This document shows, piece after piece, positions 838 through 60,900 of a DNA stretch of 64,000 nt. Each line of letters starts with the position of its first letter. Within the stretch, counting starts at the first letter, position 1. Made by a program: the position numbers and the translations under genes. Source of the stretch: Tribonema minus (lineage: Eukaryota > Sar > Xanthophyceae > Tribonematales > Tribonemataceae); NCBI GenBank assembly GCA_017506865.1, contig JAFCMP010000052.1:124001-188000 (forward strand), given 5' to 3'. The notes beneath the pieces are model-generated. The model was given only the letters and a program-made list of their open reading frames with translations, made no database searches and was not told the DNA's origin.

Positions 838-3800
838 ATGGGCACTGAGTTCAAGCGGCTGGCGCTGAAGCAGTTCCCGCAGATACAGGAAAAAGATACT
901 CCAGAGGCAAAATATTGGCGAAAGTTTAGCGGCCCTGTGGTGAGTGCTTGCGTTGCGTTTTTACTGGAGCGCCATACACAACTTCAAGTGAGGGCCTGGC
1001 CTGGCTTGCTGCCTGTTGCAGAGATAGATAGCAAGCTTAGTACACACCTTTTACATTTTTTTCCCACTGATTTATCTGGCTATCGCGTGATTCTGAACGA
1101 TTATCACATTTCTTCAAGGACCCGAAGGTGCAGAAACGAGTTTGGTCAGGGGTAGCCTTGCGGATGGCGCAATGCCGGCCGCAGCTAGCAGATGGGTAGC
1201 ATGCTGCCTACTGAAGTCACAACGCATCCTGCATGTTTTCCCATGCCGCACGTCCATCAACCAAAACATGCGGCGCGTCACTTGACGCCTCCGCAGGTGG
1301 AAACGCATGACGCGCACTGCACCAGCCTGCACTACAGTCCTGCCGCGCCATATGACTTGGCGGTCTCTTGCGGCTCACACGTATCAATACGGAGCGGAGC
1401 GACTGGCGCAAAATTGCGGGCCATCAGCAGGTTCCAGGGAGTAGCCTACAGCGGCGTTTTTCGGTGAGCGCTGCTGCACACTTTAAAGGCACCTCACGAG
1501 TGTGCCGATGCCAGGCAAAGAGCCCTATTGTCGCTGCTGCACAAAAGCAGTGCATTCTGGTAATAAAGCAGTTTTTCAACTAGCAGCGGCCCCGCCTCTG
1601 CGAGCACACTTTTTTTGGGGGGGTCAGGGCGAGGCCTCTGTTGTTGATTTTTACAAAGGGACAGTCTTCCTGTATCTTTTCTGAGCTCTGCACGCGCGCA
1701 TTGTGCGTGCATAACCGCCCTCAGCTCACTGTGCCGCCCCATGCCCAACACGCTCACGCAGACGCAGCAGCTGTCCGGGGTTTCTGCAGTACACGCTCTG
1801 CGCTGCAGTTGCAGCACTGGTTTCATGCCATATTGCAGTTACAGCACTGCTTCACGCCATATTGCATTTGCAGCATTGTGGGCTAGCGTCTCACCCTTCA
1901 TCAACTGGCCTGCACGCGCGCCTGCAACAGGGGCGATGGGAGGCTGATAGCCGGCGGGGACGCAAAGGGATCCGTGATTGTGGCGGACGCCACCAGCAAG
2001 GCCATGCTGCGCACGTTTGGTGAGCGCTGATGCGCAGATTGAAGTTGCACCTGAAGTTGCACAGGCTGCGCGGTCAAGCGGATAGCGTTGTACCGGCGTC
2101 TGAGTCGTTGCTGCGCTGTACAATTCTGTGATGTGGGACTTGTGGAGGCCATGCTGTGAATGTTTGGTGAGCGCTGATTCGCAAGTTGAAGTTGCACATG
2201 AAGTTGCACACGGCTGCGCAGTTAAGCGGACCTGCGTTCCCCCAGCATCTTCCACTAGCATCTGCGCTGCTTGCACTAGAAAGCTTCCATGGTGTGGAGC
2301 TGTATGGGGATGCATGGTGATCGGCACTATATAGTCCATGCTCATGCCTAATGTTTGGCTGTGGCCATTCTCATTGACTTCAGTAGCTGGTTGCACAGCA
2401 GTTGACTGCACGTGAACATGGCGACTTTGATGAACTTAACTGCGGTTTGTCTGCAAACCGTGCCCGGCTTGCGCGCGCGCCAACGGCTGAGCAACGCGAT
2501 CACACCATACATACCGCAGCCTCGACAGCGCTCAACCAGCACACACGCACACACACAAACACACCCAAAATCGCACGCGCTCACCACACGACCCTGCCGC
2601 GCTGACGCCGCCGCCCATCGCTGCTGCAGCCGGCCACGCCGCGGCGGTGCGCGCGGTGCGCTGGTCCGCGGACAGCCTGCGCCTGGCCAGCGCGTCGGAC
2701 GACTGAGCAATGCGATCATACATTCACAACATACCTACATACCACAACCTCCACAGCACTCACCAACGCACCCCCCCAATAACAAGCGCTCACTACACCA
2801 CCCTGCCGCGCCGCCGCCGCTGCCGCCGCCGCCGCCACCCGTCGCCGCTGCAGCCGGCCACGCCGCGGCGGTGCGCGCGGTGCGCTGGTCCGCGGACGGC
2901 CTGCGCCTGGCGAGCGCGTCGGACGACAAGAGCGTGCGCCTGTGGGACCTGCCCACGGGCGCGCACGTGGGGATGCGCGAGGGGCACACGGACTACGTGC
3001 GCGCCATGGACGCGAGCGCGGCGAGCGCTGACGCGTGGGTCACGTGAGTCAGGTTTTCCGTGACCATAGGTACGGTAGGAGGTTTAAACACGGACTACGT
3101 GCGCGCCATGGACGCCAGCGCGGCGAGCGCGGACGCGTGGGTAACATGACTGTTTGTTGGGCTGATACCGTAGGTATGGTAGGAGGTTCAGGCGCGTGGT
3201 GTGGTTGCACGGACTACGTGCGCGCGATGGACGCCAGCGCGGCCAGTGCTGACGCGTGGGTGACGTGAGTCAGATTTTCCATGATACCGTACGTACGGCA
3301 GGAGGTTCAGGCGCATGGTGGGGTGGGTGCGGCGCGCTTGTGGAGGGGCGGTTTGGTTGGGGGGCAACACGAGGGGGGCGGGGACTGTTTGTGCTGCAAA
3401 TGCCGAAGTGGACTGCGTTGCCGGCGGCACCGCATGTCTGAGCAATATTGAAGGGACAGGCAGGTAGCCTTCATGGACGTCGTGCATGCCTGCACGCTCT
3501 TGTGCTCCGACCTCGGTCCACTGCTGCTACGATCGACGGCGCAGCGGGCAGGTCCCACTGCATGCGCTCACATGCTCTCACCCAATTCTACCACGTCCCG
3601 TGCCCGCCCCGCCCTCGGCGCCGCACGCCGCAGCAGCAGCTTCGACATCGCGCTGCACCTGCGGAATACTAGCGAATGACGGCGCTGCAGATGACTACGG
3701 TACCATCGCATTGTCACTCACGCGCTCTCACCGACCATTATCCTGTTCTGTCCGATGACGCCCGTGCTCCGCAGCATCGGTCGTGACGGCTCAGTACCGC

Positions 3801-6800
3801 TGTGGGACGCACGGTTGTGGCAATGCGGCAGACAGCCAGCGTGCGCGCTTACCTAGCCCCACTGCAATTTCAAACCCTAAACCGTCCTTGTCTCACCTCG
3901 CTCGTTCTCCCCTTCAGCGACTACGACATCTCGGCGGCGCTGTTGGAAGCGCGTGCATGACGATGCGGCAGACAGCGAGTGTAGGCACTCAACTAACCCC
4001 AACCGAACCCAACTCCTACCCCGTTTGACACTGCTTGTGCTCGCGCAGCGGCGGCGACGACGGCACGGCGCGGCTGTCGGAGGCGCGCTTATGACCACGT
4101 TGCAGGCAGCGAGTGTCGTATGCATAGGCAGCTGCCAAATTTGGTGGCACGCGCGCACACGCACTCACCTCGAACACACCTTAGTGTGAGGGTTAGGGTC
4201 AGGGTGGGGGTTAGGGTTACCTCGTCCCGGGTCGCCCGTGCAGCGACACTTACGACGGCACAGAGCAGCTGCGCGGCGCGCGCTTGTGACAAGCGGCAGA
4301 CAGCCAGTGTGCGCCCCCGCCTAAAGCTTACCGCAACCCTAACCCTACCCCATTCGACACTGCTCGTGCTCGCGCAGCGGCGGCTACGACGGCACGGTGC
4401 GGCTGTGGGACGCGCGCGCGGCGGGAGCGGTGCGCGTCATGGAGCACGGCGCGCCCGTGGAGGCGGTGCTGTGCCTGCCCGGCGGCAGCCTCGTGGCGTC
4501 CGCCGGCGGCAACGTGCTCAAGGCGAGTCGCGCGGCGGCAGCGCTCAACAGCATGCAACAGCGCTCAGCACGTGTGATGTGTGTGTGTGTGTGCGCGCGC
4601 GCTGGGATTATCAATGATGAGCGCGCGGGGGCTGCGCGCGTGCGTGGCTGCGGCTGGGCGTGGCATGCATTCGTGCCAGTGAAAGTCGACTGAACTTTGT
4701 GGCTGGCGGTGTACGCAAGGCGAGCGGGCGGCGCTTGGTCAGCAGTGCTCAGCGCAGGGCCGCGTGCGCGAGATAGGCTGCTGCGGCGCGCTCTTGGAAC
4801 GCATGTGCGCCTGTCGAGGTCGATCAATGATTGTCGTGGTGGAAAGCGTGCGTGGGCAGCGTGCGTGCGCACTTGGCGAGGTTCACGGGCTGCCGTGGTC
4901 GAATGTGTGCTCAAGCGGGCAGTGCTCAGTCAGCAGCGCTCAGCCCATTGCGCGTTGCCGATGCTCACATGCATGCGAGGTTGGGCGCTGGAGTTTCCTG
5001 TGCACGAGACGTCATGGCCGAATACGTGCAAGTTTGAAGTAGACAGGGGCTTTGTGCGCATCGTGGGCGCGGTGGCAGGGGTCCTGTTGTGCTGTTGCAG
5101 TGCTCCGAGCCGTGCGGTACAACGGGTACCGCGCCTGACAGCGCGCATGCGCGCGAGCACGCCATCAGCAGTATCACGAGCCAATCCTCACGCTTCTCTG
5201 TGCCTCTCTGCCGCAGATCTGGGACGCCACTTTCCTTGCGAACTGTTTTAACTGAATCGCTTCCTCATTGTGACGTTAACCTACTTTGAGTGCCTCTCTG
5301 AAAGACATGCAAGTAGCAGCACACTGTGCTGAACCTGGAATAGAAGTTGAAGTTCAGTGCGCACTGCCTGCTGTGCGACCCCTGCACCTCTCTGCTGCAG
5401 ATCTGGGACGCGATGGGCGGCGGCAAGCTGGTCCACGAGTGCAGCCACCACCAGAAGACCATCACGTGCCTGGCGCTCAACGGCTCGCGCACGCGCCTGC
5501 TCACAGGCGGTCTCGACGGCCTCGTCAAGATCTGCTCCCTTTCCACCTACCAGGTAAGCTGATTTCGTTGTCTTCAGATATTAATGCATTTGTATCATTC
5601 GGCGTGAGAATACCTCACTCGCCTCGATCTTGTCAAGATGTGCTTGATCATTGACCTTTCGTGACGCGTGTATGTTACAATGGCTCACTTGACTCATTCA
5701 CTGGGCGTGCAGATGGTTGGCAGGCATCGTCATCTGCTGACTGCCGCACGCAGCAGGCGAGCTGCCTTCGTGTCGAGTGTAATGAGCTATGCGTGCATAC
5801 CCACATACTCCAGTGCCAGTTAACATGACCGGCATCATGGATGAGTGCTTTCGCGGTAGGCAGCATATTCTATGAGGCCTGTGCCATGCCATTCATATGC
5901 ATCGTGGACACTGCGCAATGGTACATAGGTACATCGAGCGTCTGCATTCATCAAAAAGCATCAGCAGCGCACGTCATGCACTGCTGCCGCGAGGCGAGCG
6001 CGCCTGCACGTGCCAGTGCAGACTACACACAGAGTACACAACGTATCGACCGGTGCACTGTGTGCGCGCCGCCGCCGCCGCCGCCGCTGCGCCGCGGGTG
6101 ATGCCCGGCCTACTGACAGTACACAGAGAATACACATGTACTGGTCTGTGAACAGCATGCGCACCGCCGCTGCCGCTGCGCTGCAGGTGACGCCCGGCCT
6201 GAGTACGCTACACAAACATAACACTATGTACAGGCCTCTGACCCCGCATGCGCGCTGCCGCCGCCGCTACGCCGCAGGTGATGCACGGCCTGCGCTTCCA
6301 GGCGCCGCTGCTCAGCCTGGCCCTCAGCGCGGACGGCGTGCAGATGGCGGCCGGCACCGCAGACTGCGCGCTCACGCAGCGGCGCAGGCCCGCTCCCTCA
6401 GGTACGGAGGAGCTTGTGTACACGAGGGGCCGGGGTGTAGGCTGCATTTGGCCCCGCTTCATGCGTGCCTACGTGCGAACTACTTCGAAAGCAGTCGGGG
6501 ATGCGTGTCGATGTGGATTGGTCACCACCTACTCAACTGCTTCCAATGGCGCTGATAACCGATGCGCGAACACACAGCCTGTGCGTGTCATGTACGACGC
6601 AGAGAGGCCGGGCGCAGCAGTGCCACCCGTACCTGCGGTGCGACGGAAGGCATTGCTGTGTGCGCACTTGGGTTGGGGCACTGGTCACCTGACCATGGGG
6701 CCGTCACTGCAGCGCTCACTGATGCAGCATGCAGGGTACATGTGGCGCGTACACACATACGTACACACACAGCGTCACGACTCGGCTGCGGCAATGCGGC

Positions 6801-9800
6801 GCTCGGAGCCTCGTGCACGCCGTCCCACGCGACGCGCACGCCCGCAAGCATCGAGCGATGGGCACGCAAATCAGCCACGTCTGTAACCGCCACCGCGACA
6901 CCAGCGCAGCGCATGCTGTCACAAAAGCGCCAACTTGCCAGTTGCGCCAGTTTGCTGTGCATGCACGCTCACGAAACGCCGCATGCGCGCCGCCGCTCGA
7001 CCTAGCGCTGCAGCCGCGACAGCGAGGCGCGCGCGCGGCGCCCGCTGTGTCCCCTGGCTCGCGCTTTCTTGATGTGACGTGCGTACCCACTCGAAGCTTG
7101 ACAGCCACACAAAAAAGGCGCCGCGCATTAATGTGTCCGGCTCCCACTGCAGCGTACCATCGCGCGAGACGTCTGGATGCACAAATCACTACGCTAAAGT
7201 ATGCTCACAAGATGTCGTGTGTGCGCGCTGCTGCTCCTCCTCGCGCCGCAGCCGCAGCGTGCCATCGCGCAAGACTCTCCGCAGGCATGAGTCACTGCGC
7301 CCACGAATGCTTTTAAACTGCCGTGCATGCGTCGTTTTCTGCGCTGCAGCCGCGGCGGTGCGGCGCGCGGAGCGCCCGCTGTACGCGCCGCAGCGCGGCA
7401 CGCCCGCGTACCTCAAGCGCGGCTCGCGCAACGCCGTGCCGGGCCTGGACGACACGCTCGTGGAGCAGAAGCGCCACAAGCCGCTGCAGCCGTACGACCA
7501 GAGCCTGCGCAAGTTCAGGTGCGGTCGCAACATTGAATGCTAAAGAGCTTGCACACAGAGGTCTTTCGACTACATACTGTGGATATGATGGCACTGTTTG
7601 ACTCGTGGCCACTGACTGCAGCAGCGGCGACCACGGTCATGGGTGGACGGCATTCGATTTGACGGCTCACCACACCTTGTCACCTAAAGCTCTACGATAT
7701 ATTTTGATTCGTTTCCACTAACATCGCGTAGATCGCCGTGCAGAGGAGCCTGAACTCGAGCCATGACAGAAACAAGCCACACACGCATGCTCGGCGGCAG
7801 TACGGGCACACACGCCTGGGGCTATTTGCTTTGTGACTGAGCGCGTTCTTGGCGTAACGGTTTCCACGGGCAGGCCTTTTGCACGTGGTGCTCGCAGGCC
7901 GCGCCTGTTGATACCAATGAGGCGCTGCGTAGCAGTCGTCGGTGCGCAGCTGTTGGCGGACAAAGTACTTGCGTCACGCCACTGCACGGTGCAGCTCGTG
8001 TGCTTGCCGGGCTTGCACGAGCCGTCTGCTAAGGATTAGACCTGGGTTACGTGCATGCGCTCCTTGGCGCTTTTCATGGAGCGTCTCTGTCAAGTTCTGT
8101 CTTCCCAGCAAGTTCTACCCTCAAGCGCGCCCTTCGTGCTCATCGGCTAGCAAGCCCAAACCTTCTTGGCACGATAGAAAGCAGCCATCACTGGCTCCTG
8201 CTATACCACACTGACCCATGCCCGTGTGGGGTGGCGTGCGGGTGTTCTCAGTCAGCTTCTGTATTGTCGCAATGTCATCATCCGGCTGCACATGATTAAT
8301 GATGTTGTTGCTCGTGACCCTGTCGCGTCAGGTATCAAGAGGCGCTCGACCTCGCGCTCGCCACGCGAAGCCCTATCGTGGTGGCATCCGTTCTGGAGGA
8401 GCTCATACAGCGCAGGTACGTATTGCTCACTGCTGTCGCAATCGTGGCCTTGCCAAGCAGCTGGTGGCCTTCGTGTTGGGGGCGTAGGTACAGGAGTTGA
8501 GAATCAACCATGAGCACAAGGTTGCTGGGACGTTGTGGTTTTGTAAAGTCTCATGATGTCTGACTACGGTTTGACCAGCACGCATCACAGGCGGTGTGTG
8601 TGCAGTGCTCAAAACTGCTCGTCTCATGCAATTTGTCAGCATCATGTAGTCTCAAGACAATGCCTGCAGTTCACGCTGCCGGCTGTTTCTTGCATGTGCG
8701 GCATCTTGACAGACGACTGGGCCAGTGAAAAATTCAAATATGTGTGCTGCCTGTGCGCTATGCTGTCAGTTGCTCTGATGCTCGAACTCGCATCCGCATA
8801 GCCCGGTGCAGCGGCTACCACCATTCTGTCCCCTCTTTCCCCGAGGCCTGACTCCACCTGCGCACTCATTTTCTGGGCATTTTTTCCTTATTGAGGGGCC
8901 TCACACTCATTTTCTGGGCATTCCCCCCCTTATTTAGGGGTCTCAACATAGCGCTCGCGGGCCGCGACGAGGTCACGCTGGAGCCCATCCTGGCCTTCCT
9001 CGCGCGCTACATCGCCAGCCCGCGCTACGCGCCGCTGCTGATCGACGTCACGCACGCCGTGGCGGACGCCTACGCGTCAGCGCTCGGCGAGAGCGAGGGC
9101 GTCGACGAGCTCTTTGCACGGCTGCAGCGCCAGGTGTGTGTGTGTGTGTGGCAGTGCTCACAAATCTTCAGACAGCGAGGGACTAGTCGCTGTTTCGGGC
9201 GCCAACGTCCTGCTCGCACATGCGTACTCGATAACCACAACGTCCAGCAGCGAGGGCGATGGCGTGGATGACGCCAGGCTGCAGTGCCAGGTGAGGGGGA
9301 TGCGTGTGGCAGCGCTCACCAGTTGTTAAACAGCGAGGTACTTGTTGCCGTTCCGGGGGCCGACATCCTGCTCGCACGTACATACTCCATGACCACAACC
9401 TCCAGCAGCTTCCGACTCTGGCAATAAAGGTGACTGCGGGGCCTGCACTTTCAACTTCAAGTGTGGGTACTTGAAGAGTGAGCGCTGTTGCGTGCGGCAA
9501 TGCACCGGTCGTGGTGTCCTTGTGCAAAAGTTGGAAACACGGAGATGAATACTAATGTTTGTGCAGTTTTGAGCGTCGGCGCAGTGCCGGATGAGCGCTG
9601 ATGCGGTGAGGGGGAGTGTCGCGTGCGCCATCGCGGGGCTGGACCAGATCAAAGTAAACTTATTCGTGAAGTTCTCTGCGACACATGTGTGAACACCTCG
9701 CACGCGCTTTTCAAATACTGTTTTGGCAGAGGCGCTTCGTAGCTCGCGCCTCTACAATGGAAGTCGTACGCTCTGGCGTGCTGCAGCAAGCGCACATGGC

Positions 9801-12025: not shown

Positions 12026-12029
12026 TATG

Positions 12030-12830
12030 TCACGAAGCAGCAGCGGCAGCGGCTCTGGGATGAGTACAACAGCGGCTAGGGCAGCCATGCGAGCGACTTC
12101 GGCCCCGCCGTCGTCGCTGGCTTGGACAGCGCCGCTTCCCAAATCAGGCGCGAGGAGCGAGCGGTCTTAGCAATCATCCAAGGCCAGATGTCCACCCCCG
12201 GTAAGGATATGACTCGTCAACGCTTTGAAAGCGCAGGACAGCAGCGATCCGCACCTGCCATCACCGATATATGCTGTGTGAGACGCATGAAGGCTTGATT
12301 TGAATTTGGGTTGAAGTAGCACAGAACATGGTGGTGCCTGAAAGGCGGCCTGTAGATTGGATCGCAGGCTGGATCAGTCATCTGCGTCAGCATTGCTCCT
12401 CTCTCAACAATTCCTGCTGCATTTTGCTTCGCTTTTCTCGCCGTACAGATGGGCAACGCATCCTCCGGCAAGATCCTGCTGCATTTGCTTCCCATTTCCC
12501 GCTGTACAGATGGGCAACGCACCCTCCGGCAAGCTCTCCGCGACCTGCGTGCGACGACCCGAGAAATGCCACGCAGCCTGGGGCAGCTGGAGGCCGGCAT
12601 CCAGGGCAATTTCGACGCAGCCATCGTGGTCGTGGCGACCCTTGCCGATGATCGGATGCGTCAGCGAATGGACGATCTGCTGCCCCAGCTTGCTCAGGTG
12701 GCACTGCCGGACGATGACCAGCGCGGCTCCAAGGAGAGGGCATCTTTCACGCCCCCCCGATCATCTGCCGCCGGCTTCGATGGTGCTGCGAGTGCTGGCG
12801 ATGGTCCCGATGTTGAGGTAAAAGCACGGC
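12030..12830 (+). CDS. Unrecognised duplicated gene, left copy
   Basis: Two blocks keep the same reading as the inverted partner. Block 1 (about 12040-12290) is Ser/Gly-rich, then ASDFGPAVVAGLDSAASQ and ERAVLAII. Block 2 (about 12510-12830) encodes a likely helical segment (TLRQALRDLRATTREM, LGQLEAGIQGNFDAAIV, MRQRMDDLLPQLAQVA). Between them is non-matching sequence ending in a CCGTACAG acceptor. The acceptor and next ~30 bases are duplicated in tandem (12445-12520), so either copy could be used. No family recognised. It could be a host gene pair or part of an unclassified repeat. Confidence 0.35.
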
Positions 12831-15181: not shown

Positions 15182-18100
15182 TCATTGCTCGCCATCCCTT
15201 CCAGATTCATCATGTTGCGTTTGCTCCGATGGTGGCGCAGCTCTTGGCGTGTCTGCCGTTATGGCATACATGGCTAGCACCTCCTCTTCTATGGGATGGG
15301 TCTCTCCAGCAATGACGAGACTGTGTAATGGCGCCCCGAAGTCGACCGTAATGAGCTCGTCCAGTGTGCCCGATACAATGAGCTGTGACGGCTATCAATA
15401 GCACAGGAATGTCACAGGGCGAAGTGGAGCAACAACATCAAATAAGCGGTGACTGATTGAAGGCGCTGTCTGTGAAGAGCTGATGATGCACTCACGCATC
15501 CAAAGCGCTGTGAGCTGTGTTGGGATATTTGAACTTCTGCTGAAGTATGTCATACATGGCCGCATCGGCACATGAGTGATTGAAGTCCATTGTCAACTTC
15601 AACTTAGACCGACGTGCCTGCTGTAGGCATGTTCACTGTGACAATATGACTACACATGCAAGACCATGGAGACGCAATGGCCCCATCATAAAGCAATAAA
15701 CGGCAACGCACTTAGTGCCTGCCCCTAACAAAGTGCCTTGACCATGAGCCTTGACTGCGGGCAAAAACTTCAGCTACACATCTACAGGCAAGGAAGTCAT
15801 ACTGCAGCTTGGATTTGGGCTAATACAGCCCGCTAGAAATGTTGGTCCTTTCCTGGCGCTGCTAGGCAGCCAAAGCCTACACAGGCATCAACACGGCAGT
15901 ATGACAGCGCCGCAAGTGCAGCATCCCGACGAACCATAAAGTTAATTGTGCTTTGCATTGCATCCGCAGGCTGACCGTGGAGATGCAACTTCTTGCATGA
16001 AAAGCACATCCCTCGTCAACCAAAATTTTGAACTGCTGCAATGCGTTGGTCAAACAAGTTGGCTCCCCCATGTGCGCATATGACGGAAGGTTCGACAGCG
16101 TTTCTGTATGCCTGCATAGTCTTGAAAGGAAGCTGCTCACCCTTTACATATCTATGCTATCATTGCAAACTGTGATACATCGATGATAACTCTGTGGAGC
16201 CAAGTTGCATACCTCTGCAGCTGTAAGTTTTACGTATGTGTGTACATGCCAGCCTCACCTGTCCTAATCGCGCAAGCCCAACCGCCATAGTGTCCTTGGT
16301 GTATGCACCTGCTTTTCTCTCCGTCTCCACCTCTAATAGCTGCTCCACGGCCTGGCAGAATGGCAGTGCACAAATGACAAAATAGTGTACTCAGATGTAT
16401 CGCAGATTGGAGACCGCTGCTAACCACTCATCAAACAAAACCTATGCTTGTGCTTGAAGCACTGGCGTTGTAATCCGTCAAAAGGCCTTTGACATTATTG
16501 ATGACTGGACATGCTTCAGAACGCCAAGCCTCTGAGAAGCAAAATGCAGAGACAAAGCTGACCGGTGTTGGCCTACACTGCAGGCAGGATGACCAGGTGA
16601 CCAGCATATCCGCAACCTCTTGAGCAATAACAGGCACAGCAGGCCTTCTGGCCAGACATACATGCATCGGAATAAGTTGGCAATGGGGACAATGCGCATG
16701 ATGACATTTGCGGTGTACACCGTGATTCGCCGAATGCAGCTTGCTGCGCGAGGGCTGTTGTGTTTCAGACAAGCACAGTTGCCTGTGAGCAATAAAGACG
16801 TGAAGGGCCTTTTAACACCTGCAGTCCTCCCGTCACTATCAACACTCTCAAGTGCCTCTAGCCGTCACACAACTAGGAAAGCAGCCATTGCACGCATAAC
16901 CTTACCAGTCTCAATGGCGTCATCGCAGACGTTTGCTCGCACTTGCGCAATGGTATAACAGACGCTCACTCTCACCTGCGCAATTGTCATGAACCGCGGC
17001 GGCAGGTAGCGCACGCGCCCCTTGGCCATCTCCGCAAAGTCGGGCTCCTTCACCTTGATGTCCAGCAGGCACAGCGTGTGCATGCCCCCCTGACAGCGCA
17101 CCACGCACCAGCGCTCAGCGTAAGTTTAGCGTATTGTGCAATTGAGATGAGTGCCCCCCTGACAGCGCACCATGCACAGCGCTCAGCGTAAGTTTAGCAT
17201 ATTGTGCATATGAGATGAGCGCAGGCACAGCGTGTGCATGCCGCCCTGACAGCGCACCATGCACCAGCGCTCAGCGCAAGTTTAGCGTATTATGCATTGC
17301 CGCTATACGGTGACATGAGGCGATCGCCACCGATAATGCCTAATGCAGGCACAGCGTGTGCACGCCGCCCTGCCAAAGCACCACGCACCAACGGCGATCG
17401 GTGTGAGTTATGCATGTGATATGAGCGGCAATGCAGCAGACAGCGCGTCAGGCACCAGCGGCAACCGGCACAAGAGTGTGCGTATGATATGAGCGCTGCT
17501 GCATTGCCGCAACGCAGCAACATGAGGCGGTCGCCACAGATGATGCTTAATATAGCACTACAGTGGGGCGTGCCTGCACGTTAAGCCGTATTCAGGCATG
17601 ACTGGCATCAGTGTGCATCAGCAATTTGCAGGCTTGCTGCAGGGGGGGGGGGGGGGGGGGCAATTGAGGCATTTATAAACACGTGTCTCGGTCAATGCAC
17701 GTCAATATCAAGTGCAACTGAGTGATGCCATTCACATGCTGCCTGAACGCGTGCTCATTGTTTCACTGCGCATGTTGACGCGCAATCATATTGTGCCCGC
17801 AATGAAAAATATGTGGTAGTATGCATTGCCTGCATCCAGCATGTTGATCGTGCCCCAGCTGTTGGCGCATTGCAATTATGTCGGTACAGCGCATTTGAAG
17901 CCATCGCCGGCTTCTGAGCAAACATCCGCTTATGAGTCACACACCAGCACGTGTCAAGATGAGTAGTCCAACAGTGCACCGAAACATGGCGTAGTAAGAA
18001 CCTGTTGATTGAAAACGGTCTCCGGAATGGTTATTTGGCATGCATCCAGTGCCACCTCAACTACATACATCGACGCACCTTTCGATTGTACAGGACTTTT

Positions 18101-19691: not shown

Positions 19692-22600
19692 ATGGATCTG
19701 CTGGCGCAAGGCAACGCTGCATTCGTCGACGATGACTTTGCCAGGGCCGTGCAGGTGCGGACTCCCATCTGCTCGTCAACAGTGTACAAATTTAACACAC
19801 CTCTGCATTGCAGCTCTGTAGACATATCTTGACGGCATTTACGTGGCTGGGCCAGCAGTGTTGATGCTTTCATGAATCAGGGCAGCATCACACTGGCCGC
19901 TTCTATAGCGCTTGTGCCCGACATGCCGAAAGTTCGATCCAGTCAATCTTCTCACTTTGCAAAAGAAACGAGGAGCAGCGTTCAGCAAGCACGAAGCTTT
20001 GTGCTGTTGCTTTCAACTGTGCATACCGTGTCATCATCTGTAATTGACAACTTACACCAATCTGACTCACTGAATGTCTGCTGCGCACAGCTTTACACTC
20101 AAGCCGTGGAGGCGGACGCAGGACTGGCGGATGCCTACGCTGCACGCGCCGCCGCGCACCTGAAGCTGAGGCGCCACGCCGATGCCCTGCAAGATGCGGA
20201 TGGCGCGCTCAAGTAAGTCCTGCGGGCGTGAGTATGACGGTGCCTGCCCCTCACGCCAGTGCGCTGACTGCAATATGAGATTGGGATGAAGTCAGGTTAT
20301 CTTTTGGTCGGACAAGCGGCGGTGGGCAGCGCACGTTACACGCTTGTTGATTTGTGAGGCGGCATGCAGCATTGCAGACCAGCAAGTGCATGTCCAGATT
20401 GCGCCCACTTGCGGTCAGCAAACTAATACGTGACGAAGCAGTCCAGCCTGAGCCTCACCTCTGGCTGCAGCGAAGCAGCTGCAAAAGCAGTTCACACAAG
20501 AGGCCAGCAGAATGGCGCCACATCAACAAATTGCGCCAAATATGCCGCACGCAAGTGCAGCACGCTCGCCAACCCCGCTCTCACAGCGGCTTCACAGCGC
20601 CGCAAAAGCTCTCTCTCTCTCGTACACTCTGCAGCACGCACAGAGGACGTGCATCTCACGCCGCGGCTGCTCCCATATCCTCAGGTTGCGGCCAGGGCTG
20701 GAGCCGGCTCTGTACAGGCGCGGCGTGGCGTGCTTCTCGCTGGACAAGTATGCGGAGGCGCTGGAGGCGTTCACAGCGGGGAAGGCGGCACAAGGCGACA
20801 GGCCCGCAGGCAAGCTGCCGTTTGTGTGCAGGGTCCGTGCTAGGCCGCATGATCATATGATCAGGTGTTTGGCAGTGCAGAAGGGCGGGCTTGACACCAC
20901 GCGGTAGAGTATCGTGGTGGCAGGGTCATGAGACACGCGCGAGGTGCGTCCATGCATGCTGCCCGCACAGCAAGTGCCTTCAGCAGTTGTCAGGGATGTG
21001 ACGCCAAATTGACCCTAACCCTAACCCTAACCCTAACCCAGGAGGCGACCTGCAGCTGCCGATGACATCAGCCATGCTACCTTATCTTCATGCTGTAGAG
21101 CACAGGGCGCGTTGCTGCTGATCAGGAAGCTTCTTTGAAGCTGCAGGTTGCTCTGCAGCTGCGACATTCAGTGCAAAGCAAGTCGCTGCAGCTCTGTGCT
21201 TGAGATAATCGATTGCAAGGGAAGGCGCTGAATGTTGATGCTATGATGATAGGCGATGAAGTTTGCCCGCAACATGTGTCAAGACTTGCGCCCTGTTCAC
21301 CTCGCTAGCTGTGGCTGCATGGCACATTTCAGACACCGCAATGCAGAACACACGTTTTGTCAGAGTCCTTGACGAAGCAAAACAATGCCGGTTGCGCACC
21401 GGGGCATAATCCCAGACATTGCATTGCAGTCTACACGGTCTGTCAGAGTACCTTGCCAATGTAAAACAATGCCGGTTGCTCACCCCAGACGACATCCGGC
21501 ACTGATGAGCCGACAGCTGTACAATTGACAAGACCACTGATTGCCACATTTGTTGCTTGTACACGGCAGGGTTAGGGTCAGGTAAGGGTTGGGATCAGGG
21601 GAAGGGTTAGGGTTCACTGTTGGTCCACCTGGCAGTCTGCTTGTACACCGCAGGATCTAGGACCAGGGTAAGGATTAGGGGCAAAGGGTGAGGATTAGGG
21701 CCAAGGGATACTCGGTCATGCAAAGCCGCCTCCCCCTGCGCCTCACACCTACGGCACCCTCCCTGTACGCGCTTGCCGGCCCCATCAGGCACTGACGACA
21801 GCCGCAAGTACAGCACGTGGATCCGCAAGTGCAACGCGGAGCTCGAGGCCGCCGACGCAACCGCAGCAGCGGCCGCCGCTGCCGCTGCTGCCGCGAAGCC
21901 TGCGCCCGTGCCCGCTGCTGCTGCTGCCGCCGCGCCGCCGCCAGCGCTCGTGCCGCCCAAGTACCAGTACTACCAGACGGCGGACAAGGTTACGGTCGGC
22001 ATTCTGGAGAAGGTGGGGCGTCACATTTGAAGTCCATTTGTATGGAAGTTGGGTCACGGTTGTGCACAAAGTTTGCCAGAGGTGGATGCCGCGTCATTGT
22101 TGATGTCGCAGCGTGCGCGTTTTGTTGGCATTGCTGAGTGCACAGATGCTGAGCGCCATGACATCAGCCGCTCATCTCAGGTGCGCATGCTGACACGCGC
22201 GCTGCCACACTGCTTGATCGCGGCTGTTTGCATTCCAGCCGCCGCATCCCGTCCTCCCATTCATCAAACCAGTCAGAGTCAGCGCCGCAATTGCATCAAC
22301 AGCGCCGTCTGATGTACGCCCCGCTGGCAGCACGTGCCCTTGTATGTGGAAGCGAATCAACAGATCTTAGAGCTCTAAGTGACTAGGTGTGGTTAGCCGT
22401 CAAATTGAATGCCTTCCACCAACAACCGTGGTCGCCGATGCTGCGGCAGTTGGCCACGGGTCAAACGGTATTTAAAACATGCATACACCCTCCGCACATC
22501 GGCAACTGCAGCATTGCTCACCGTCGCACCGCGCCCTGCTGCGCGGCGCCGCAGAACGTGCGCGAGGGCGACGCGGTGGTGGACATCTCGGAGGACCGGC

Positions 22601-30110: not shown

Positions 30111-32909
<2,799 letters not shown>

Positions 32910-44281: not shown

Positions 44282-44325
<44 letters not shown>

Positions 44326-47300
44326 CCACGCAGCCCCCTTTGTTAAAACAACACACACGCTCGCTCTCTCTCTCGCCGCAGCGGCCAGCGCGCGCGACTG
44401 GATCTCTTTCGATGACGCGCGCGCCGCGGGCCGTGCGGGCGCCGCGCAGGGCGGCACTGCGTCGGCGTGGGGCACTGCCGCCGCCGCTGCCGCCGCTGCT
44501 GCGGGCGGCGGCTGCGACGGCGCGCACGCGATGACCTGCACGCGCTGCGCGTACCAGTACCGCCTCGGGTGGCGGCTGCCGCGGTCGCTGCGGGAGCTGG
44601 CACGCGTCACGGTGAGCGCTGAGCGCTGCTGCTGCCGCTGCTGCTGCTGCTGCTGCTGCTTGCTGCTGCTGCTGCTGTCCAGCCCACCCTTGTGAGCTGG
44701 TCGCCGCCCCTGGGTCTGTTACTTTGTACACGCAGCGGCGTGTGGCCACCACGCAGCATATATGCGCACGCGCTGCGCGTAACAGAGCTGTCTGCGGCAG
44801 CTGCTGCCGCACTTGGTGGGGGAGCTGGCGCCTCATCCCCCCCTTGCAGCCCCTGACTCCCCCCATATGCAGGAAGACGCATACATGACACGCGCATCGC
44901 ACTATCAGCGACGTTGCGCGCCTCAACCCCCTGCTGAGCACCTGATGACCCCCCACCCCACCCCCCCGTTCCCCTCCGCCCCACAGATGGAGGACCGAGT
45001 CGCGTGGAAACGCGCGCTCAGCAGCATCGGGTACTGGGGCCTGCTGGTGAGCCTGGTGCACACGCTGGAGGTGCGGTTCGGCGGCGTGGACGCTGCGGAG
45101 GCAGCAGCGCTCGGCGGTCTGGCGTGGCCGGAGCCGGGCGGGTGGTGGCTGGCGTGGTGGCTGTTTCAGCAGGTGAGACGGCGGTGCCGGCCGCTGCTGC
45201 CATGGTACTGTTTATTGCGCTTTGCAGTTGAGGTTTGAGTGAGTGAGCCATGATGACGGCCCGTTCTTGGCGTGAGCGCATGCGCGCCACAAGGTCTGCT
45301 GGCGCATGTACACGTGGTCAGTGGGTCGCGTGCATGCAGAGTGGGCGATTGCGGGCTCGACTGGGGCCAGGGTTATTGGTAGTTGGCCGAACGACGGCCG
45401 CTTTCCAGGGGGGGACACCGCGCGGCTGCGGATGAGGCACGCGTGTGGTTCATGTTCTAGCCAAATGGTAATTGGCCAAAGCGGCAGCAAATGTTCTGAC
45501 AGCACGCGGCGCGCCGCGACAACAGGGCGGTGCAGCAGTTGTTGTTGCGAACATGCACGACGCGTGCGCGGCCGAGCATACGGTGCCACCGGCTTCTCTC
45601 TGCTGCGCGAACTCTCGCGCTCGTCGTGTACACCGCTCAAAGCACATGCGGTGCACTCACATACCTGCACACATCCACACTCACGCCGCAAGCGCAACCG
45701 CAGCTCTCTTGCGCACAGCTCTCGGGCCCCCGTTGCCCGCGCCGCGCGCGCGCCGCAGCACAGCACTGAGCACTGCTGCACCTCGCCCCCTTTCCCGCGC
45801 GCGCGTGCGCAGGTCCATGCAGCACACTCACGTACTCGCGCACGCTCACACTCGCGGCGCGAGCGCCACCGCAGCTTACCTCGCGCACGGCTCTTGGGCC
45901 CTGTCGTGGGCACCACAGCACTGAGCACTGCCGCACCTTCCCCCCCTCCCACGCGTCGCGCATCGCAGGTGGTGCTGCTGCAGATCTTCTTCTCGCCGCG
46001 CTTCGTGCACGTCGTGAGCTGCCTGTGGCGCGGCCCCATCTTCGCCTTCTACTGCAAGCTGTACCTGTACTTTGTGGGCGCGTGCTGGGCGTTCCCCGCG
46101 ACGTGGTCGCCCGCGCTCACGCGCCTCGCGCCGGCGCTGCTGCCGCGCGCGAGCCGCGGCGGCGGCGACGGCAGCGTGGCGCCGCTGCAGCGTGAGTGAC
46201 TCCACATTGTCGTGTGAAGTTTGATAGGTGCACTGCGGGTTGAGCGCTGCTGCCGCGCGCGAGCTGCGGCGGCGGCGGCGGTGCCGTGCCGCTGCAGCGT
46301 GAGTGACTGTTTCTTGTCGTGCAAAGTTGATGCTGCTGGTGGGTGCACTGCCTGACAGGCCCTGAGATCGAATGTGACCGCATAGGCACAACGCCTGACA
46401 GGCCCTACTAATGGGACTGCGGGTTGAGCGCTGCTGTCACTCGCGAGCCGCGGCGGCAACGCGTCGCTGCAGCGTGAATGTCTCCCTGCTGTCATGTGAA
46501 GTGGATGCTGCTGCTACTTACTTTGCTGACTGACTGAGTTCGATCAAGGTGTGAATGCAGGTTGAGCGCTGCTGTCCTTCGCGAGCCCCGAAGCGGCGCC
46601 GGTTCAGTGAGGGACTCTCCATCGTGTGAAGTTGACACTCCTTCTTTCACGTTGAATTTCATGACCTGACAGCGCTTCAGCAAGTGTGAATTCAGCATGC
46701 TCTGACAGCGCGGTAATCATCTGAACAGGCAAGGCGTTGCACCATTCAACGATGCCCACCAAAGCAATATCTGACAGTTGCTGTCCGCAAAGGCCAGAAT
46801 GGACCTGCAAGAAAGCAACTCGGCGGCAGGGCGCCTGCACGGAGTCGCGTCCACATGCTGACGCTGACCAATGCTCTTTTTGGCAGCTCGCACACGCTGC
46901 CATGGTGATTCTCTGCAGGTGGTACGAACCTACGTAGAAGCAGCTTTCATCCCGCCAAGTAGTTTTCACCCAGCCAAGTACTGCAGTGTTCACTGCTGTC
47001 CATATGCAGCCGAGTGTTTCTTTACGCAGCCAAGTACTTTCCACTACTCTGGACTTATTCAAACGTGTCCCATGGTCGGTGATGCTCCGCAGGCGAAGCG
47101 AGCCTGCCGCTGTGGCTAGTCGCGCTGGGCTGGCTCAACGCGCTGGCGTACCTGCCTGATTATATGAAAACGAGTCAAAAGATCGTAGAGCTCTAGGTGA
47201 CAAGGTGTGGTTAGCCGTCAAAACATGTAGCACCTCTCATAGTCTTCACTACTCTGAACTCACTCAGACATGTCCTCACGATTTGTGATGCTCCTCCGCA

Positions 47301-47483
47301 GGCGAAGCGAGCCTGCCGCTGTGGCTGGTGGCACTGGGCTGGCTCAACGCGCTCGCGTACCTGGGCGTCTCCAGCGTCGTCATCTTCCTCTTCTGGAAGA
47401 CCAACTACCGCCTGCGCACCGTCGCGGACCGGCGCCAGAGCACGGGCCGCCTGCACCCCATCCTGCACCTGCACAGCTCGTGA
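40003..47483 (+). CDS. F-box / RING-CH (MARCH-like) membrane E3 ligase, fused gene model
   Basis: Ten exons join in phase: 40003-40194, 40375-40484, 41017-41244, 41944-42089, 42932-43034, 43325-43545, 44382-44611, 44987-45172, 45969-46191 and 47302-47483 (TGA), 606 residues. Residues ~28-75 read as an F-box (GLPHEVLFAIELRLPVHDIV, LGQISRFWTARLNQLHWRSI). A RING-CH domain starts at ~261: CRIC, then PCLCSSVTHRACLEE, then, after an 85-residue Ala-rich insert, CTRCAYQYRLGWRL. C-terminal hydrophobic helices follow (YWGLLVSLVHTLEV; WWLAWWLFQQVVLLQIFF; IFAFYCKLYLYFVGACWAF; LVALGWLNALAYLGVSSVVI). RING-CH membrane proteins are ubiquitin ligases; F-boxes recruit SKP1. An alternative exon 2/3 join (donor at 40538, acceptor 41033) is also in phase. 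The F-box part could be a separate gene, but no stop or new start separates them. Confidence 0.72.
41250..41300 (+). repeat. GCT trinucleotide run after exon 3 donor
   Basis: GCTGCT repeats begin directly after the donor of exon 3 and turn into GGTGGTGG. A similar GCT run follows the exon 7 donor at about 44628-44682. Confidence 0.9.
44283..44322 (+). repeat. Poly-C run (40)
   Basis: Forty uninterrupted C bases about 60 bases before the exon 7 acceptor, in an intron of the F-box/RING-CH gene. It is long enough to raise doubt about its exact length in the assembly. Confidence 0.95.
44758..44840 (+). repeat. Decayed copy of RING-CH gene exon 7 donor edge
   Basis: GCACGCGCTGCGCGTAACAG, then GGGGGAGCTGGCGCCTCA, tracks the end of exon 7 (GCACGCGCTGCGCGTACCAG to GCGGGAGCTGGCACGCGTCA, 44537-44609). 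The frame is no longer open. Confidence 0.75.
46130..46625 (+). repeat. Four tandem copies of the RING-CH gene exon 9 donor edge
   Basis: The unit starts near GAGCGCTGCTGCCGCGCGCG, passes CGGCGGCGGC and CCGCTGCAGCgtgagtgac, then runs through GTCGTGTGAAGTT-like intron to the next GTTGAGCGCTGCTG. Copies end near 46198 (true exon), 46305, 46480 and 46610, with increasing decay. The 46305 copy keeps the exact gtgagtgac donor. Confidence 0.92.
47034..47163 (+). repeat. Upstream copy of the RING-CH gene exon 10 acceptor edge
   Basis: GGTGATGCTCCGCAGGCGAA, then GCCTGCCGCTGTGGCT and GCTGGCTCAACGCGCTGGCG (47080-47150), duplicates the true acceptor and first ~75 bases of exon 10 (from 47290). The flanking TCCACTACTCTGGACTTATT (true side TTCACTACTCTGAACTCACT) is duplicated too. 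The copy stops at GTACCTG and dispersed repeat copy D follows. Confidence 0.92.
47166..47224 (+). repeat. Dispersed intronic repeat, truncated copy D
   Basis: GAAAACGAGTCAAAAGATCG, TAGAGCTCTAGGTGACAAGG, TGTGGTTAGCCGTCAAAA. Only the first half of the unit is present, between the two copies of the exon 10 acceptor edge. Confidence 0.85.
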
Positions 47484-56209: not shown

Positions 56210-56460
56210 TGTCGTCAGTCGCCGCGATGCCAGTGGCCGTGATTGACATTCAGCGGCTGTGATGGCGGCGGTCGGGATGCCAGCGGCCGTGGTGTCAGTC
56301 GCCGCGATGTCGGTGACTCAGTGGCGGTGATGCCGGTGGCCCTGATGTCAGTGGTCCTGATGTCAGTGGCCCTGATGTCAGTCGCCCCGATGGCAGTCGC
56401 CCCGATGTCAGTGGCGTCAGCGGCTGTGATGTCAGTGGCTGGGATGTCAGTGCGGCGCGG
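56205..56460 (+). repeat. Minisatellite of about 13-15 bases starting at the stop codon
   Basis: Units such as GATGTCAGTGGCCCT, GATGTCAGTCGCCCC and GATGCCAGTGGCCGT are repeated about 16 times with changes. The array begins at the stop codon of the DUF1415-like gene (GCGCAGTGATGTCGTCAGTC), so it is probably 3' untranslated sequence. Confidence 0.9.
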
Positions 56461-57963: not shown

Positions 57964-60900
57964 ATGCGTTTGTTAAGGGCAGGCGCATTCCCCACATCCG
58001 GAAACAGACCTGAGCTGTTCTGGTTCAGAGGAAGGCGCTTTCCCGCTATGAACGACACCATCGCACCAGCAGCAGCTGCAGCTCATGGTGCGCCCCCTCC
58101 TGGCCAGCGCCTGGCTGGCGATCGCGACGCGTTTCTGCACATTACGTATCAGTCAACTGACACGTTCTACAAGGACGAGGGCGGGAGGCAGGCACACATA
58201 CAGGTGGACTGCTGCATAAGGCAAGTGGATGTGTGCAGTTGAAGGCACTGGCCTGTTTCCATCTTGCGAACTCGCACATGGCGTGCTGCCGTGCTCTCAC
58301 TGTCGCATTTCCAAAACAGGTCGGCCTGAAACACCGTCAACTGTGACTTTGAGCATCGGATACATCGCGCCAACAGCGTTTCTGCTGCTTGTCCTTGCCG
58401 CCGACTGTGTCTCATGCCGTTGTGATCGTGTCGGCGTTCCCGTTCCTGTGTTGTCGCCAGGACGTCTGGTGCGGATCTTGACTTGAGCCACGTTCCCGTT
58501 CACCTGAGGCTACTGTACGAGACAGACTACCCGGTGCACAACCAGGAGATTCTGACGACGGTGCCGGTGCTCTCGCAGCACCTGGAAACGGACAACAATG
58601 GGGAGGTCACCGTGCGCTTTCGTATCGAGGAGGTGTCCAAGAATCACCGCAGGTAACGCCCCTCACGGTAGCACACTTTGCATTCAGGTCGTACTTCATC
58701 TTCACCAGGTCTTTAAACCCAAGCTCACCACCACCGACACCTATAGCATGTATTCCAAGGACCCTCCAACGAGTTTGTCACAGTAAGCAGGGCTTTACAA
58801 AAGAGCTAGGGTTAGCTAGGCATGCGTGTACAAGGGGTTTCCAAGTTTCCGTTGATACCACACTTCAAGTGCTGAGAATATGTGTGACACTCCATGCGTT
58901 CGCTGCACCTACCACGCCTGAATGTAGCACTGCAACGCCTCTTTTGCACGTGAGCTGCATGCGGAGGCCAAGCTTGGGGTGAGGTTACTGTACCCAGGGG
59001 CAGCCGGAACCCGTCAGGGCTGACAACAGCGCATCGTCGCCTGTGCAAGATCGCAGATGCAGTCACCAACCAAATGGCGCAACGGTCTGTTTAAGGGCAT
59101 CATCAATTAGCTCTGGCGCTCTACTCGTTTGCTGCCCCCTCCCGAGTCCCTCTTGTTGCCGCTGCACGCAAGAATCAAGTCCGCAATGAAGTACAAAATG
59201 CACACGCGCGCTCTGAACCCCAAGTCATCAAGCATCGCGTCCAGCATGCTCGCCCTGATCGCACCCCCTTGCCCATGCGGCCCTGAAGTATGGTGATTGT
59301 TGACTTCATGCAGGGCTGACGCTAGCGTAAACAGTGTTGCCGCTTGAAAGCAGTTTGATCGTGCGGCCCTAAAGTGTGGTAATTGTTGACTGCGTGTGCA
59401 GCTCACGCTAGAGTCACCAGAGTTTCCGCTTCAAAGCACTACGATGACGAGGCTGGCCTGTAGCCCCACCCCCCGTGCCAACAGCCCACAGCCCCAGGGG
59501 CTGTCGACGGCGGCAAAAACGACAGAGGCAATGACACACAGCCCATGCCCCCCTCATAATATCATCCATACACGCCTCTCGCATTTGCGCCTGCCCCCCT
59601 GATGCACTCCCCCCCCCCCCCCCCCTCCCCCCCTGATGCACTGCCCCTCCCCCCCTCCCCCCCCTGATGCACTGTCCTCCCCCCCGCCCCTCGCGCGCGC
59701 GGCGCGCAGCCAGCGCTTCGTGGTGATGATCACGGCGGACACGGCGCGCATGCGCGACCTGCCGCAGATCGAGCCCATCAAGACGGCGCCCATCATGGTG
59801 CTCTCCAAGCGCAAGGACCGCAAGCGGCGCGCGGAGCAGGCGGGCCTCACGTGGGCGCCCACGCCGCAGGCGCCTCCCGCCGCCGCGGCGATGACGGCCG
59901 CCATGCAGGCGCAGCAGGTGAGGGTGCGGTAGTGCGCAGGCGTTGGCGCAGCGCAGCGCCAGGCGCCACCCGTTGCCGCGGCGATGACGGCCGCCATGCA
60001 GGCGCAGCAGGTAGAGGGGGGTGGGCGCAACAGCGCTCGGCGTCAAGGGTTTGGGTGGGTGAGAGTCACAAGTCATTTGAGAGGGGAGTGTGGGGCGACG
60101 CGCAGCATGCGGGTGTTGTGCGCGCCAGGCGCCGCCCGTTGCTGCGCAGATGACGATCGCCATGCGGGCACAGCAGGGGGGGGGGGGGGGGGGGCGCGGC
60201 AGCGCGCGGCGTTGAAGGGTTTGGGTGGGAGAGTCACCAGTCGTTTGGGAGGAGAGTGTGGGGCGGTGCGCACCGATGGGGTCGCGCTGCGGCGCTCGCC
60301 AACATCATTTCTGTCGCTTAAGTCGCGTGCCATGTCGGCGCTGGCGCCGCCCCCCTTCTCACGTACGAGCCCCCCCTCACAGTTACTGCCCTTACACTCA
60401 CTGTCACCCCCCCCACTTCAACTTCAACTTCAATAGGCGGCGGGCGACTCCGGCGGCGCGCTGGACGTGGCCGCGCTCGCCGCGCGCCGCGGCAGCCTCG
60501 GCGCCGCCGGCTTCGCGCTGCTGCCGCAGGCGCACCTGCTGCCGAACGCCGCCGCCGCCGCTGCTGCGCCCGCGGCGCCGCCGGCAGCACTGATGAGCGC
60601 TGCGCCGGCGCTGGCGCTGAAGCGCGAGGCCAGCGCGCAGCACCCGGAGGGGCCTTACACGGCGGCGGACCTGGGGCCGCTGGGGGCGCGCGCGTACCAG
60701 ATGCTGAGCGATGCTGAGGTGCGCAGGGGGGGGTTAGGGGGCGGGGGTGGGCGGGCATTTGTGTTCTGTATGAGTGTACTTGATGTGAATGTGAGGGCTG
60801 AGGCGTGGAGGCAGGGAGTAGGGGGTATGTGTGTGTGTGTGTGGTGCGCGGTTGACGTGGCGTGTCCCTAACGGAGGTGCTCTGTATGCTCTTCCTTCAC

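What the first reader, a model, noticed from the sequence alone, without database searches (positions are those of the whole stretch)
2600..60195. Introns grow by tandem copying of exon edges with their splice sites
In most multi-exon genes here, at least one intron carries one to four decaying tandem copies of the neighbouring exon's edge, with its donor or acceptor and some intron flank. Clear cases: UTP15 exons 4, 5, 6, 7, 8 and 10; DPH5 exon 4 (both sides); SGT1 exon 6 and its stop-codon end; cupin_5 exon 2; methyltransferase exon 6; RING-CH gene exons 7, 9 and 10; DUF1415-like exon 3; the last + gene's exon 3; and one unit of the inverted duplication. Both ends of exons are affected and units are about 70-180 bases. 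Tandem duplication at AGGT-type sites is a known route to intron gain. A genome-wide bias of intron enlargement toward exon boundaries would be something else, perhaps repair or template switching centred on splice junctions.
Basis: seen in the sequence. Interest (0 to 1): 0.85.

Follow-up and report, generated by a model that had tools for sequence, protein, structure and literature searches.

The report
Tandem exon-edge copies that lengthen introns
In this stretch of what is probably a green alga's genome, short tandem duplications that cross the border between exon and intron have left decaying extra copies of exon edges and splice sites inside the introns, apparently making them longer without changing the proteins; the duplications are real and denser at exon edges than chance, but they need no special splice-site mechanism.

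Summary
I rebuilt 56 introns of 12 genes; the joined UTP15 and DPH5 exons align to solved relatives over most of their length. Local direct repeats far exceed the inverted control: 36 to 1 at 50 bits or more within 1 kb. At 45 bits, 20 arrays lie inside genes and 15 cross a splice site (8 donors, 7 acceptors); 17 of 56 introns carry an array.

The copies look like ordinary duplicates of which one stays functional. Copy-versus-exon divergence is 0.18 at synonymous sites, about 0.19 in the non-coding part and 0.08 at non-synonymous sites, near the 2:2:1 expected if the exon is conserved and the intronic copy drifts.

Edge arrays are in excess: 15, against 6.0 expected under viable placement (P 5e-5) and 9.0 under circular shift (P 0.006). 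With coding sequence masked, 9 of 15 cross a site (P 0.015 against 0.30, 0.18 against 0.45). Duplications are not centred on the junction, and repeat coverage is nearly flat with distance from it.

I conclude: local tandem duplication, purged inside exons and kept at edges. A junction-directed mechanism is neither shown nor excluded by one window.

The parts
1999..2230 (+). UTP15 exon 3 donor-side array: exon end, donor and intron flank, 2 copies (site 2019)
   Evidence: 105 bits
2483..2927 (+). UTP15 exon 4 acceptor-side array, 2 copies, offset 216 (site 2853)
   Evidence: 176 bits; copies abut
2986..3324 (+). UTP15 exon 4 donor-side array, 3 copies (site 3043); the middle decoy donor GT is lost
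   Evidence: 182 and 124 bits; coding differences all synonymous
3785..4417 (+). UTP15 exon 5 acceptor-side array, about 4 decayed copies by eye (site 4377)
   Evidence: 123 bits; the copy at 3965-4088 carries non-synonymous changes
6073..6292 (+). UTP15 exon 7 acceptor-side array, 89 bp unit, 2.4 copies (site 6277)
9087..9409 (+). UTP15 exon 10 donor-side array, offset 163, copies abut (site 9133)
12412..12536 (+). Acceptor-side array of the + member of the inverted gene pair, offset 62 (site 12509)
   Evidence: 81.5 bits; exon model
17065..17551 (-). DPH5 exon 4 acceptor-side array, several copies, 69 bp and longer offsets (site 17089)
   Evidence: 141 and 120 bits
23419..23699 (+). SGT1 acceptor-side array of the exon at 23690 (site 23689)
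   Evidence: 60.8 bits
25536..25784 (+). SGT1 stop-codon end plus 3' flank, about 2.5 copies of 85-90 bp; no splice site involved
27980..28115 (+). Cupin_5 exon 2 donor-side array, 68 + 68 bp, exactly abutting (site 28009)
37672..37996 (+). Methyltransferase-like gene, donor-side array of the exon at 37578 (site 37775)
   Evidence: 137 bits
45645..45970 (+). RING-CH gene: repeat ending 2 bases into the exon at 45969 (acceptor included); not counted as crossing
   Evidence: 75 bits
46134..46597 (+). RING-CH gene donor-side array, about 4 copies (site 46191)
47042..47363 (+). RING-CH last-exon acceptor-side array (site 47301), with a dispersed repeat lying between the copies
   Evidence: 130 bits
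52878..53140 (+). DUF1415-like gene exon 3 donor-side array (site 52892), weak
   Evidence: 47.3 bits
56202..56452 (+). DUF1415-like gene: last 8 coding bases with stop, plus 3' minisatellite; no splice site involved
59867..60272 (+). Last + gene exon 3 donor-side array, 3 copies (site 59917)
21330..21484 (+). Interior intron array, SGT1 (not at an edge)
   Evidence: 64 bits
35337..35803 (+). Interior intron array, methyltransferase-like gene (not at an edge)
   Evidence: 81.5 bits
59276..59438 (+). Interior intron array, last + gene (not at an edge)
   Evidence: 68 bits

Best explanation
Ordinary local tandem duplications of roughly 60-230 bp arise along the genes. Those lying wholly inside an exon, or doubling a whole exon, are removed by selection. 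Those crossing one exon edge are harmless, because the outermost copy keeps an intact exon end and splice site and the other copies fall inside the intron, which grows by the unit length. The extra copies, with their decoy splice sites, then drift neutrally. Edge duplications stay recognisable longer than intron-interior ones because one of their two copies is held by selection; this may account for much of the edge excess. Shown here: the repeats, head-to-tail layout in part of the arrays, the edge excess, and a divergence pattern near that of one constrained and one neutral copy. Inferred: the mutational origin (slippage, end-joining or unequal exchange), fixation, the size of the survival advantage, and which splice sites are used.
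For: Direct against inverted local pairs 36 to 1. 10 of 27 pairs at 60 bits abut or overlap (at most 1 unmatched base between copies); several of the rest are non-neighbouring copies of one array. Coding differences by codon position 24/289, 25/291, 42/290. Synonymous 38/207, non-synonymous 52/618, non-coding mismatches 253 of 1338 columns (summed). Decoy GT/AG bases kept at 45 of 48 positions, 21 of 24 decoys keep both; by my arithmetic, drift of about 0.09 in the decoy alone predicts about 20 of 24. Edge excess 15 of 20, 9 of 15 when coding sequence is masked. Introns with arrays have median 979 bp, without 598 bp. Donors and acceptors about equally affected. Stop-codon edges affected too.
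Against: An assumed two-fold survival advantage for edge arrays leaves 9.1 expected against 15 seen (P 0.006), three-fold 11.0 (P 0.05), so a real edge preference may remain. The 2:2:1 fit is approximate: in 20 of the 23 alignments, 37 non-synonymous differences were seen against 50.5 expected from half the neutral pair divergence, and without the doubtful 44538 pair the pooled rate is 40/575 (0.070). Three arrays (UTP15 exon 4 donor side, the last RING-CH exon, cupin exon 2; four alignments) differ from the exon only at synonymous sites: 15 synonymous, 0 non-synonymous over about 149 sites, where about 15 were expected; zeros that strong recur with P 0.004, though overall dispersion is not significant (P 0.22). 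17 of 27 pairs have 9-231 unmatched bases between the aligned parts.
Confidence: 0.65

Rival explanations
1. Exon-intron junctions are mutational hot spots: a repair or template-switching process makes tandem duplications preferentially at exon edges, and introns grow mainly there.
For: 15 of 20 gene arrays cross a splice site against 6.0 (viable placement, P 5e-5) or 9.0 (circular shift, P 0.006) expected; without UTP15 9 of 14 (P 0.0045 and 0.047). With coding sequence masked, a loose reading (repeat reaches the site, or any overlapping unmasked repeat crosses it) gives 12 of 15.
Against: Stricter masked count 9 of 15, P 0.015 against 0.30 but 0.18 against 0.45; one search's own count of masked repeats running up to a site is 5 of 15. 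Without UTP15, an assumed two-fold survival advantage gives P 0.09. Repeat coverage is almost flat with distance from the junction. The junction is not central in the unit and the exon part varies from 7 to 74 bases. Donors and acceptors are alike, and stop ends are affected too.
Confidence: 0.2
2. Some arrays are made of two diverged alleles or haplotypes put side by side, by unequal exchange between diverged homologues or by assembly, at the conserved exon where the two can pair.
For: Three arrays show only synonymous coding differences together with 12-22% divergence of the non-coding part; zeros P 0.004.
Against: Other arrays carry non-synonymous changes (52 in all over 23 alignments; the 2 stops are both in the doubtful 44538 pair). 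Arrays of three or more copies, and a middle copy with a dead donor, do not fit two joined haplotypes.
Confidence: 0.07
3. The decoy copies are functional alternative splice sites, kept because they regulate isoforms.
For: 21 of 24 decoys keep intact GT or AG.
Against: Neutral drift of about 0.09 per base in the decoy predicts about 20 of 24 (my arithmetic). Non-synonymous drift overall is near that expected for non-functional copies. No RNA data.
Confidence: 0.05
4. Intron gain by duplication of an AGGT-containing exon segment.
For: Tandem duplications involve exon sequence and splice sites.
Against: In the listing each of the 14 edge arrays holds a single splice site, not the donor and acceptor of one intron. 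Whether these introns are old or new was not tested.
Confidence: 0.02

Closest known systems
Internal tandem gene duplication spanning exon-intron boundaries (Gao and Lynch 2009, recalled; cited in PMC3443670 and PMC4974935, passages seen)
   Same: Segments internal to genes duplicated in tandem; by recall, often including an exon-intron boundary.
   Different: Here no array pairs a donor with an acceptor into a new intron: the result is intron sequence with decoy edges. 17 of 56 introns carry an array; not compared with published rates, since the paper itself is not held.
Potato RdRp intron gain by tandem duplication across an intron-exon boundary (PMC4974935, passages seen)
   Same: The duplicated segment crosses an intron-exon boundary and carries its splice signals.
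   Different: There a new intron arose; here the existing intron absorbs the copy.
Tandem genomic duplication of AGGT (Rogers model; PMC3443670, passages seen)
   Same: Tandem duplication of exon sequence near splice-like sites.
   Different: Copies are not paired into donor and acceptor of one new intron.
[quoted passage not shown] 2007; title seen in a reference list in PMC2586383, paper not held)
   Same: By title, tandem arrays within genes linked to introns.
   Different: Use of the decoys is untested here.
Introners (PMC9860276, listing and start of abstract only)
   Same: A process that adds intron sequence in many genes.
   Different: Introners are dispersed copies of one element; these copies come from the adjacent exon edge.

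Membership tests
Internal tandem duplication spanning an exon-intron boundary | Duplicated segment lies inside one gene and is direct and local | tested here: met
   36 direct to 1 inverted pairs at 50 bits or more within 1 kb; 20 arrays within gene spans
Internal tandem duplication spanning an exon-intron boundary | Unit includes exon edge, splice site and intron flank | tested here: met
   15 of 20 arrays cross a splice site by 4 or more bases each side
Internal tandem duplication spanning an exon-intron boundary | Copies are head to tail | tested here: inconclusive
   10 of 27 pairs at 60 bits abut or overlap; 17 have 9-231 unmatched bases between aligned parts, some of them non-neighbouring copies
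AGGT intron gain by tandem duplication | New intron runs from the donor in copy 1 to the acceptor in copy 2 | tested here: not met
   In the listing each of 14 edge arrays contains a single splice site
AGGT intron gain by tandem duplication | Intron absent in relatives | not testable with these tools
   No related eukaryotic genome at hand; scans of viral contigs and genome contigs found no relative
Introners | Same element in many unlinked introns | tested here: not met
   Within this window only: at 60 bits 27 of 33 direct pairs are within 1 kb; copies match the adjacent exon edge
Junction-directed duplication process | Arrays cross junctions more often than chance | tested here: met
   15 of 20 against 6.0 or 9.0 expected; the per-site version is weaker, P 0.03-0.07
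Junction-directed duplication process | Excess persists without help from conserved exon sequence | tested here: inconclusive
   9 of 15; P 0.015 against 0.30, 0.18 against 0.45
Junction-directed duplication process | Endpoints or centre fixed relative to the junction | tested here: not met
   Exon part 7-74 bases, mean fraction 0.35, sd 0.21, n 15

The most novel reading that the evidence does not exclude
In this lineage, tandem duplication is several-fold more frequent at coding-noncoding edges than elsewhere, through replication or repair trouble at the switch from GC-rich exon (0.67) to intron (about 0.57), so introns lengthen mainly by repeatedly copying exon edges, leaving decoy splice sites throughout the genome that the spliceosome ignores.
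Probability: 0.15. Interest if true: 0.75.

Novelty: new member of a known kind. Interest (0 to 1): 0.42.

Why it matters
How introns get longer, apart from transposon insertion, is rarely caught in the act. Here 17 of 56 introns still show the copies, with a built-in clock: synonymous, non-synonymous and intron divergence of the same duplicate. The intact decoy donors and acceptors near the real ones are natural tests of how the spliceosome picks a site. If the edge excess held genome-wide among young duplicates, it would point to exon borders as fragile sites.

Tried and rejected
Whole-genome test: impossible, no genome is held for this window. Related loci were sought to enlarge the sample: a dispersed-repeat pattern in viral contigs and genome contigs, RPS23, UTP15 and DPH5 proteins in viral contigs and SGT1 in genome contigs; none gave a relative. 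Rfam: nothing at gathering threshold.

A per-site test by circular shift gave only weak support (17 of 108 sites against 10.7, P 0.03, at 35 bits; 14 against 9.4, P 0.07, at 45 bits). Coverage against distance was nearly flat. Both speak against a sharp junction effect. On masked sequence, itself counted 5 of 15 repeats running up to a site at 45 bits; reading its list loosely I got 12 of 15; the stricter rule, that the same repeat must cross the site, gives 9 of 15, which I use.

Haplotype concatenation was considered because three arrays show only synonymous changes; it was kept as a minor rival. In the dispersion test I used 20 of the 23 alignments and left out 44538, 56202 and 37672. One search's 24 rows (35 bits or more) include one pair (44423-44502) that lies inside an exon and is probably chance. 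Repeats with fewer than 12 distinct triplets, or with offset below 25 or above 600, were left out of the array counts. The exon I first placed at 44069 was dropped because it breaks the frame; the starts of the SGT1 and RING-CH genes were not found. The exon 1 lengths of the inverted pair, and the end of exon 2 of its + member, are arbitrary.

Organism: a chlamydomonadalean alga such as Haematococcus is my guess from GC content and AACCCT repeats (PMC7617258, passages and section 3.5 seen). It is not shown.
Full report
What was checked. The window is eukaryotic, 64 kb, 49-69% GC in 2 kb steps, and no genome is held for it. I read the sequence and built gene models with GT-AG or GC-AG introns and in-frame joins. 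The multi-exon genes are UTP15 (11 exons), DPH5 (6), SGT1 (7 found), a Cupin_5 gene (3), RPS23 (4), a methyltransferase-like gene (9), an F-box/RING-CH-like gene (10 found), FKBP (2), a DUF1415-like gene (7) and a last + gene (5). Later I added the two genes of an inverted pair. Pfam supports TP_methylase, CS, SGS, Cupin_5, FKBP, Ribosom_S12_S23, DUF1415 and F-box-like; the methyltransferase match (25 bits) is below its cut-off of 27, and the last + gene and the inverted-pair protein match nothing. Joined UTP15 aligns to human UTP15 over residues 5-497 of 517, without a gap up to about residue 320 (exons 1-7, array-bearing joins included), with small gaps after that, one of them at the exon 7-8 join. 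DPH5 aligns to a solved diphthine synthase over residues 2-255 of 295 with one two-residue gap. So for these two genes the exon edges do not depend on the repeats.

The repeats are real. Self-comparison gave 36 direct against 1 inverted pair at 50 bits or more within 1 kb, and 48 against 2 at 40 bits. With offset 25-600, low-complexity units removed and 45 bits or more there are 23 arrays, 11 of which also appear by position in the Tandem Repeats Finder list. Of the 23, 20 lie inside gene spans once the inverted pair is included. Fifteen cross a splice site with at least 4 bases each side: 8 donors and 7 acceptors, in 9 of 12 multi-exon genes. 17 of 56 introns carry an array; median length is 979 bp with and 598 bp without. 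Copies cover 12% of intron bases, 6% of exon bases and 4.6% of intergenic bases at 45 bits.

What the copies are. In each edge array one copy is continuous with the real exon and the others lie in the intron. Comparing exon with intronic copy over 23 alignments (not all independent, since multi-copy arrays give several), mismatches by codon position are 24/289, 25/291 and 42/290. Synonymous differences are 38/207 sites, non-synonymous 52/618, and the non-coding part 253 of 1338 columns, 0.19 (summed). If the exon is held at amino-acid sites and everything else drifts, the expected ratio is 2 (synonymous): 2 (intron): 1 (non-synonymous); the data are near that. Without the doubtful 44538 pair, which holds both stops, non-synonymous is 40/575 (0.070). 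In 20 of the 23 alignments 37 were seen against 50.5 expected from half the neutral divergence, so the fit is approximate. The decoy GT or AG bases are kept at 45 of 48 positions, and 21 of 24 decoys keep both; by my arithmetic about 20 of 24 would be expected from drift of about 0.09 in the decoy alone. There is no sign that decoy sites are either purged or preserved.

An exception worth keeping. Three arrays (UTP15 exon 4 donor side with two decoys, the last RING-CH exon, cupin exon 2; four alignments) have 15 synonymous and 0 non-synonymous differences. In a simulation, four alignments with zero where more than two were expected occur with P 0.004, but overall dispersion is unremarkable (P 0.22). 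These copies may have diverged while coding, for example as alleles later joined by unequal exchange or by assembly. The middle UTP15 copy has a dead donor, which does not fit a joined functional allele.

Is there a bias to exon edges? I used several nulls.
- Random viable placement (intron-only, or crossing exactly one site with exon overlap no longer than the unit): 6.0 expected, 15 of 20 seen, P 5e-5. Allowing edge arrays an assumed two-fold or three-fold better chance of being seen: 9.1 (P 0.006) and 11.0 (P 0.05).
- Circular shift along concatenated genes: 9.0 expected, P 0.006. Without UTP15: 9 of 14, P 0.0045 (placement; 0.09 with two-fold advantage) and 0.047 (shift). Without UTP15 and the RING-CH gene: 7 of 10, P 0.0039 (0.058 with two-fold advantage) and 0.04.
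- Before the inverted pair was added the figures were 14 of 19 against 5.8 (viable placement) and 8.6 (shift, P 0.0025).
- Counting sites instead of arrays gives P 0.03-0.07.
- Hiding coding sequence from the search, so that conserved exon bases cannot help detection, leaves 15 gene arrays at 45 bits, of which 9 are the same repeat crossing a site: P 0.015 against 0.30 and 0.18 against 0.45. At 40 and 35 bits it is 10 of 17 and 12 of 22.
- Coverage against distance from the nearest site falls only from 0.132 to 0.095.

The excess is therefore present, moderate and partly carried by UTP15, and part of it can be explained by edge duplicates staying recognisable longer.

Is it centred on the junction? 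No. The exon part of the copy ranges from 7 to 74 bases and is on average 0.35 of the copy, sd 0.21 (n 15). Donor and acceptor sides are alike. Two arrays straddle stop codons (25536-25784, 56202-56452; the second includes only 8 coding bases) where there is no splice site.

Mechanism. I favour ordinary local tandem duplication with a viability filter: a duplication inside an exon breaks the frame or protein, while one across an edge leaves an intact outermost edge and pushes the rest into the intron, where it drifts. Whether the first step is slippage, end joining or unequal exchange is not shown. A real mutational preference for exon edges remains possible (0.2).

Relation to known work. Tandem duplication as a route to intron gain is well described (PMC3443670 and PMC4974935, passages seen). 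The potato case crosses an intron-exon boundary, as here, but made a new intron. Gao and Lynch 2009 on internal gene duplication is the closest general work; I know it only by recall and citation, since it is not held. In seven paper searches the titles and abstract starts listed did not describe a bias of intron enlargement to exon edges. The lists were capped (for example 20 of 154, 15 of 1,764) and most subscription papers are not in that library, so this is weak evidence of absence.

Limits. One window, one observer's gene models, 20 arrays, no relatives, no RNA. The organism is not identified.

Noticed in passing
2183, 5344, 15596, 22898, 31883, 48288, 53656, 54088, 60415, 60421: The 10-mer ACTTCAACTT occurs 10 times (two overlap) against 0.07 expected from shuffles, 9 in introns and 1 intergenic, in both orientations relative to the gene; AACTTCAA occurs 24 times counting both strands. 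Unexplained dispersed motif.
   Followed up: partly
7535-7718 (-), 22346-22469, 38654-38822, 47164-47217: Dispersed repeat of about 55-190 bp with a shared core TAGAGCTYTARGTGACWAGG, four copies, all in introns of my gene models; one lies between two copies of a tandem array. Looks like a small non-autonomous element; no clear terminal repeats seen by eye in the alignment.
   Followed up: partly
12009-12475 and 13236-13638: Inverted pair of related genes; the minus-strand member reads through an open frame, the plus-strand member has a TAG in exon 1 and a tandem array at its exon 2 acceptor. No Pfam match for exon 2 of the minus-strand member.
   Followed up: partly
4523, 20810, 58221: GC-AG introns (GCGAGT, GCAAGC, GCAAGT donors) in UTP15, SGT1 and the last + gene.
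   Followed up: no
21012-21039: Short interstitial array of the telomere-like AACCCT motif, with similar degenerate stretches seen by eye elsewhere in introns.
   Followed up: no
30111-32909 and 49000-50472: RPS23 and FKBP have long introns (up to 1357 bp) but no tandem array at 45 bits.
   Followed up: no
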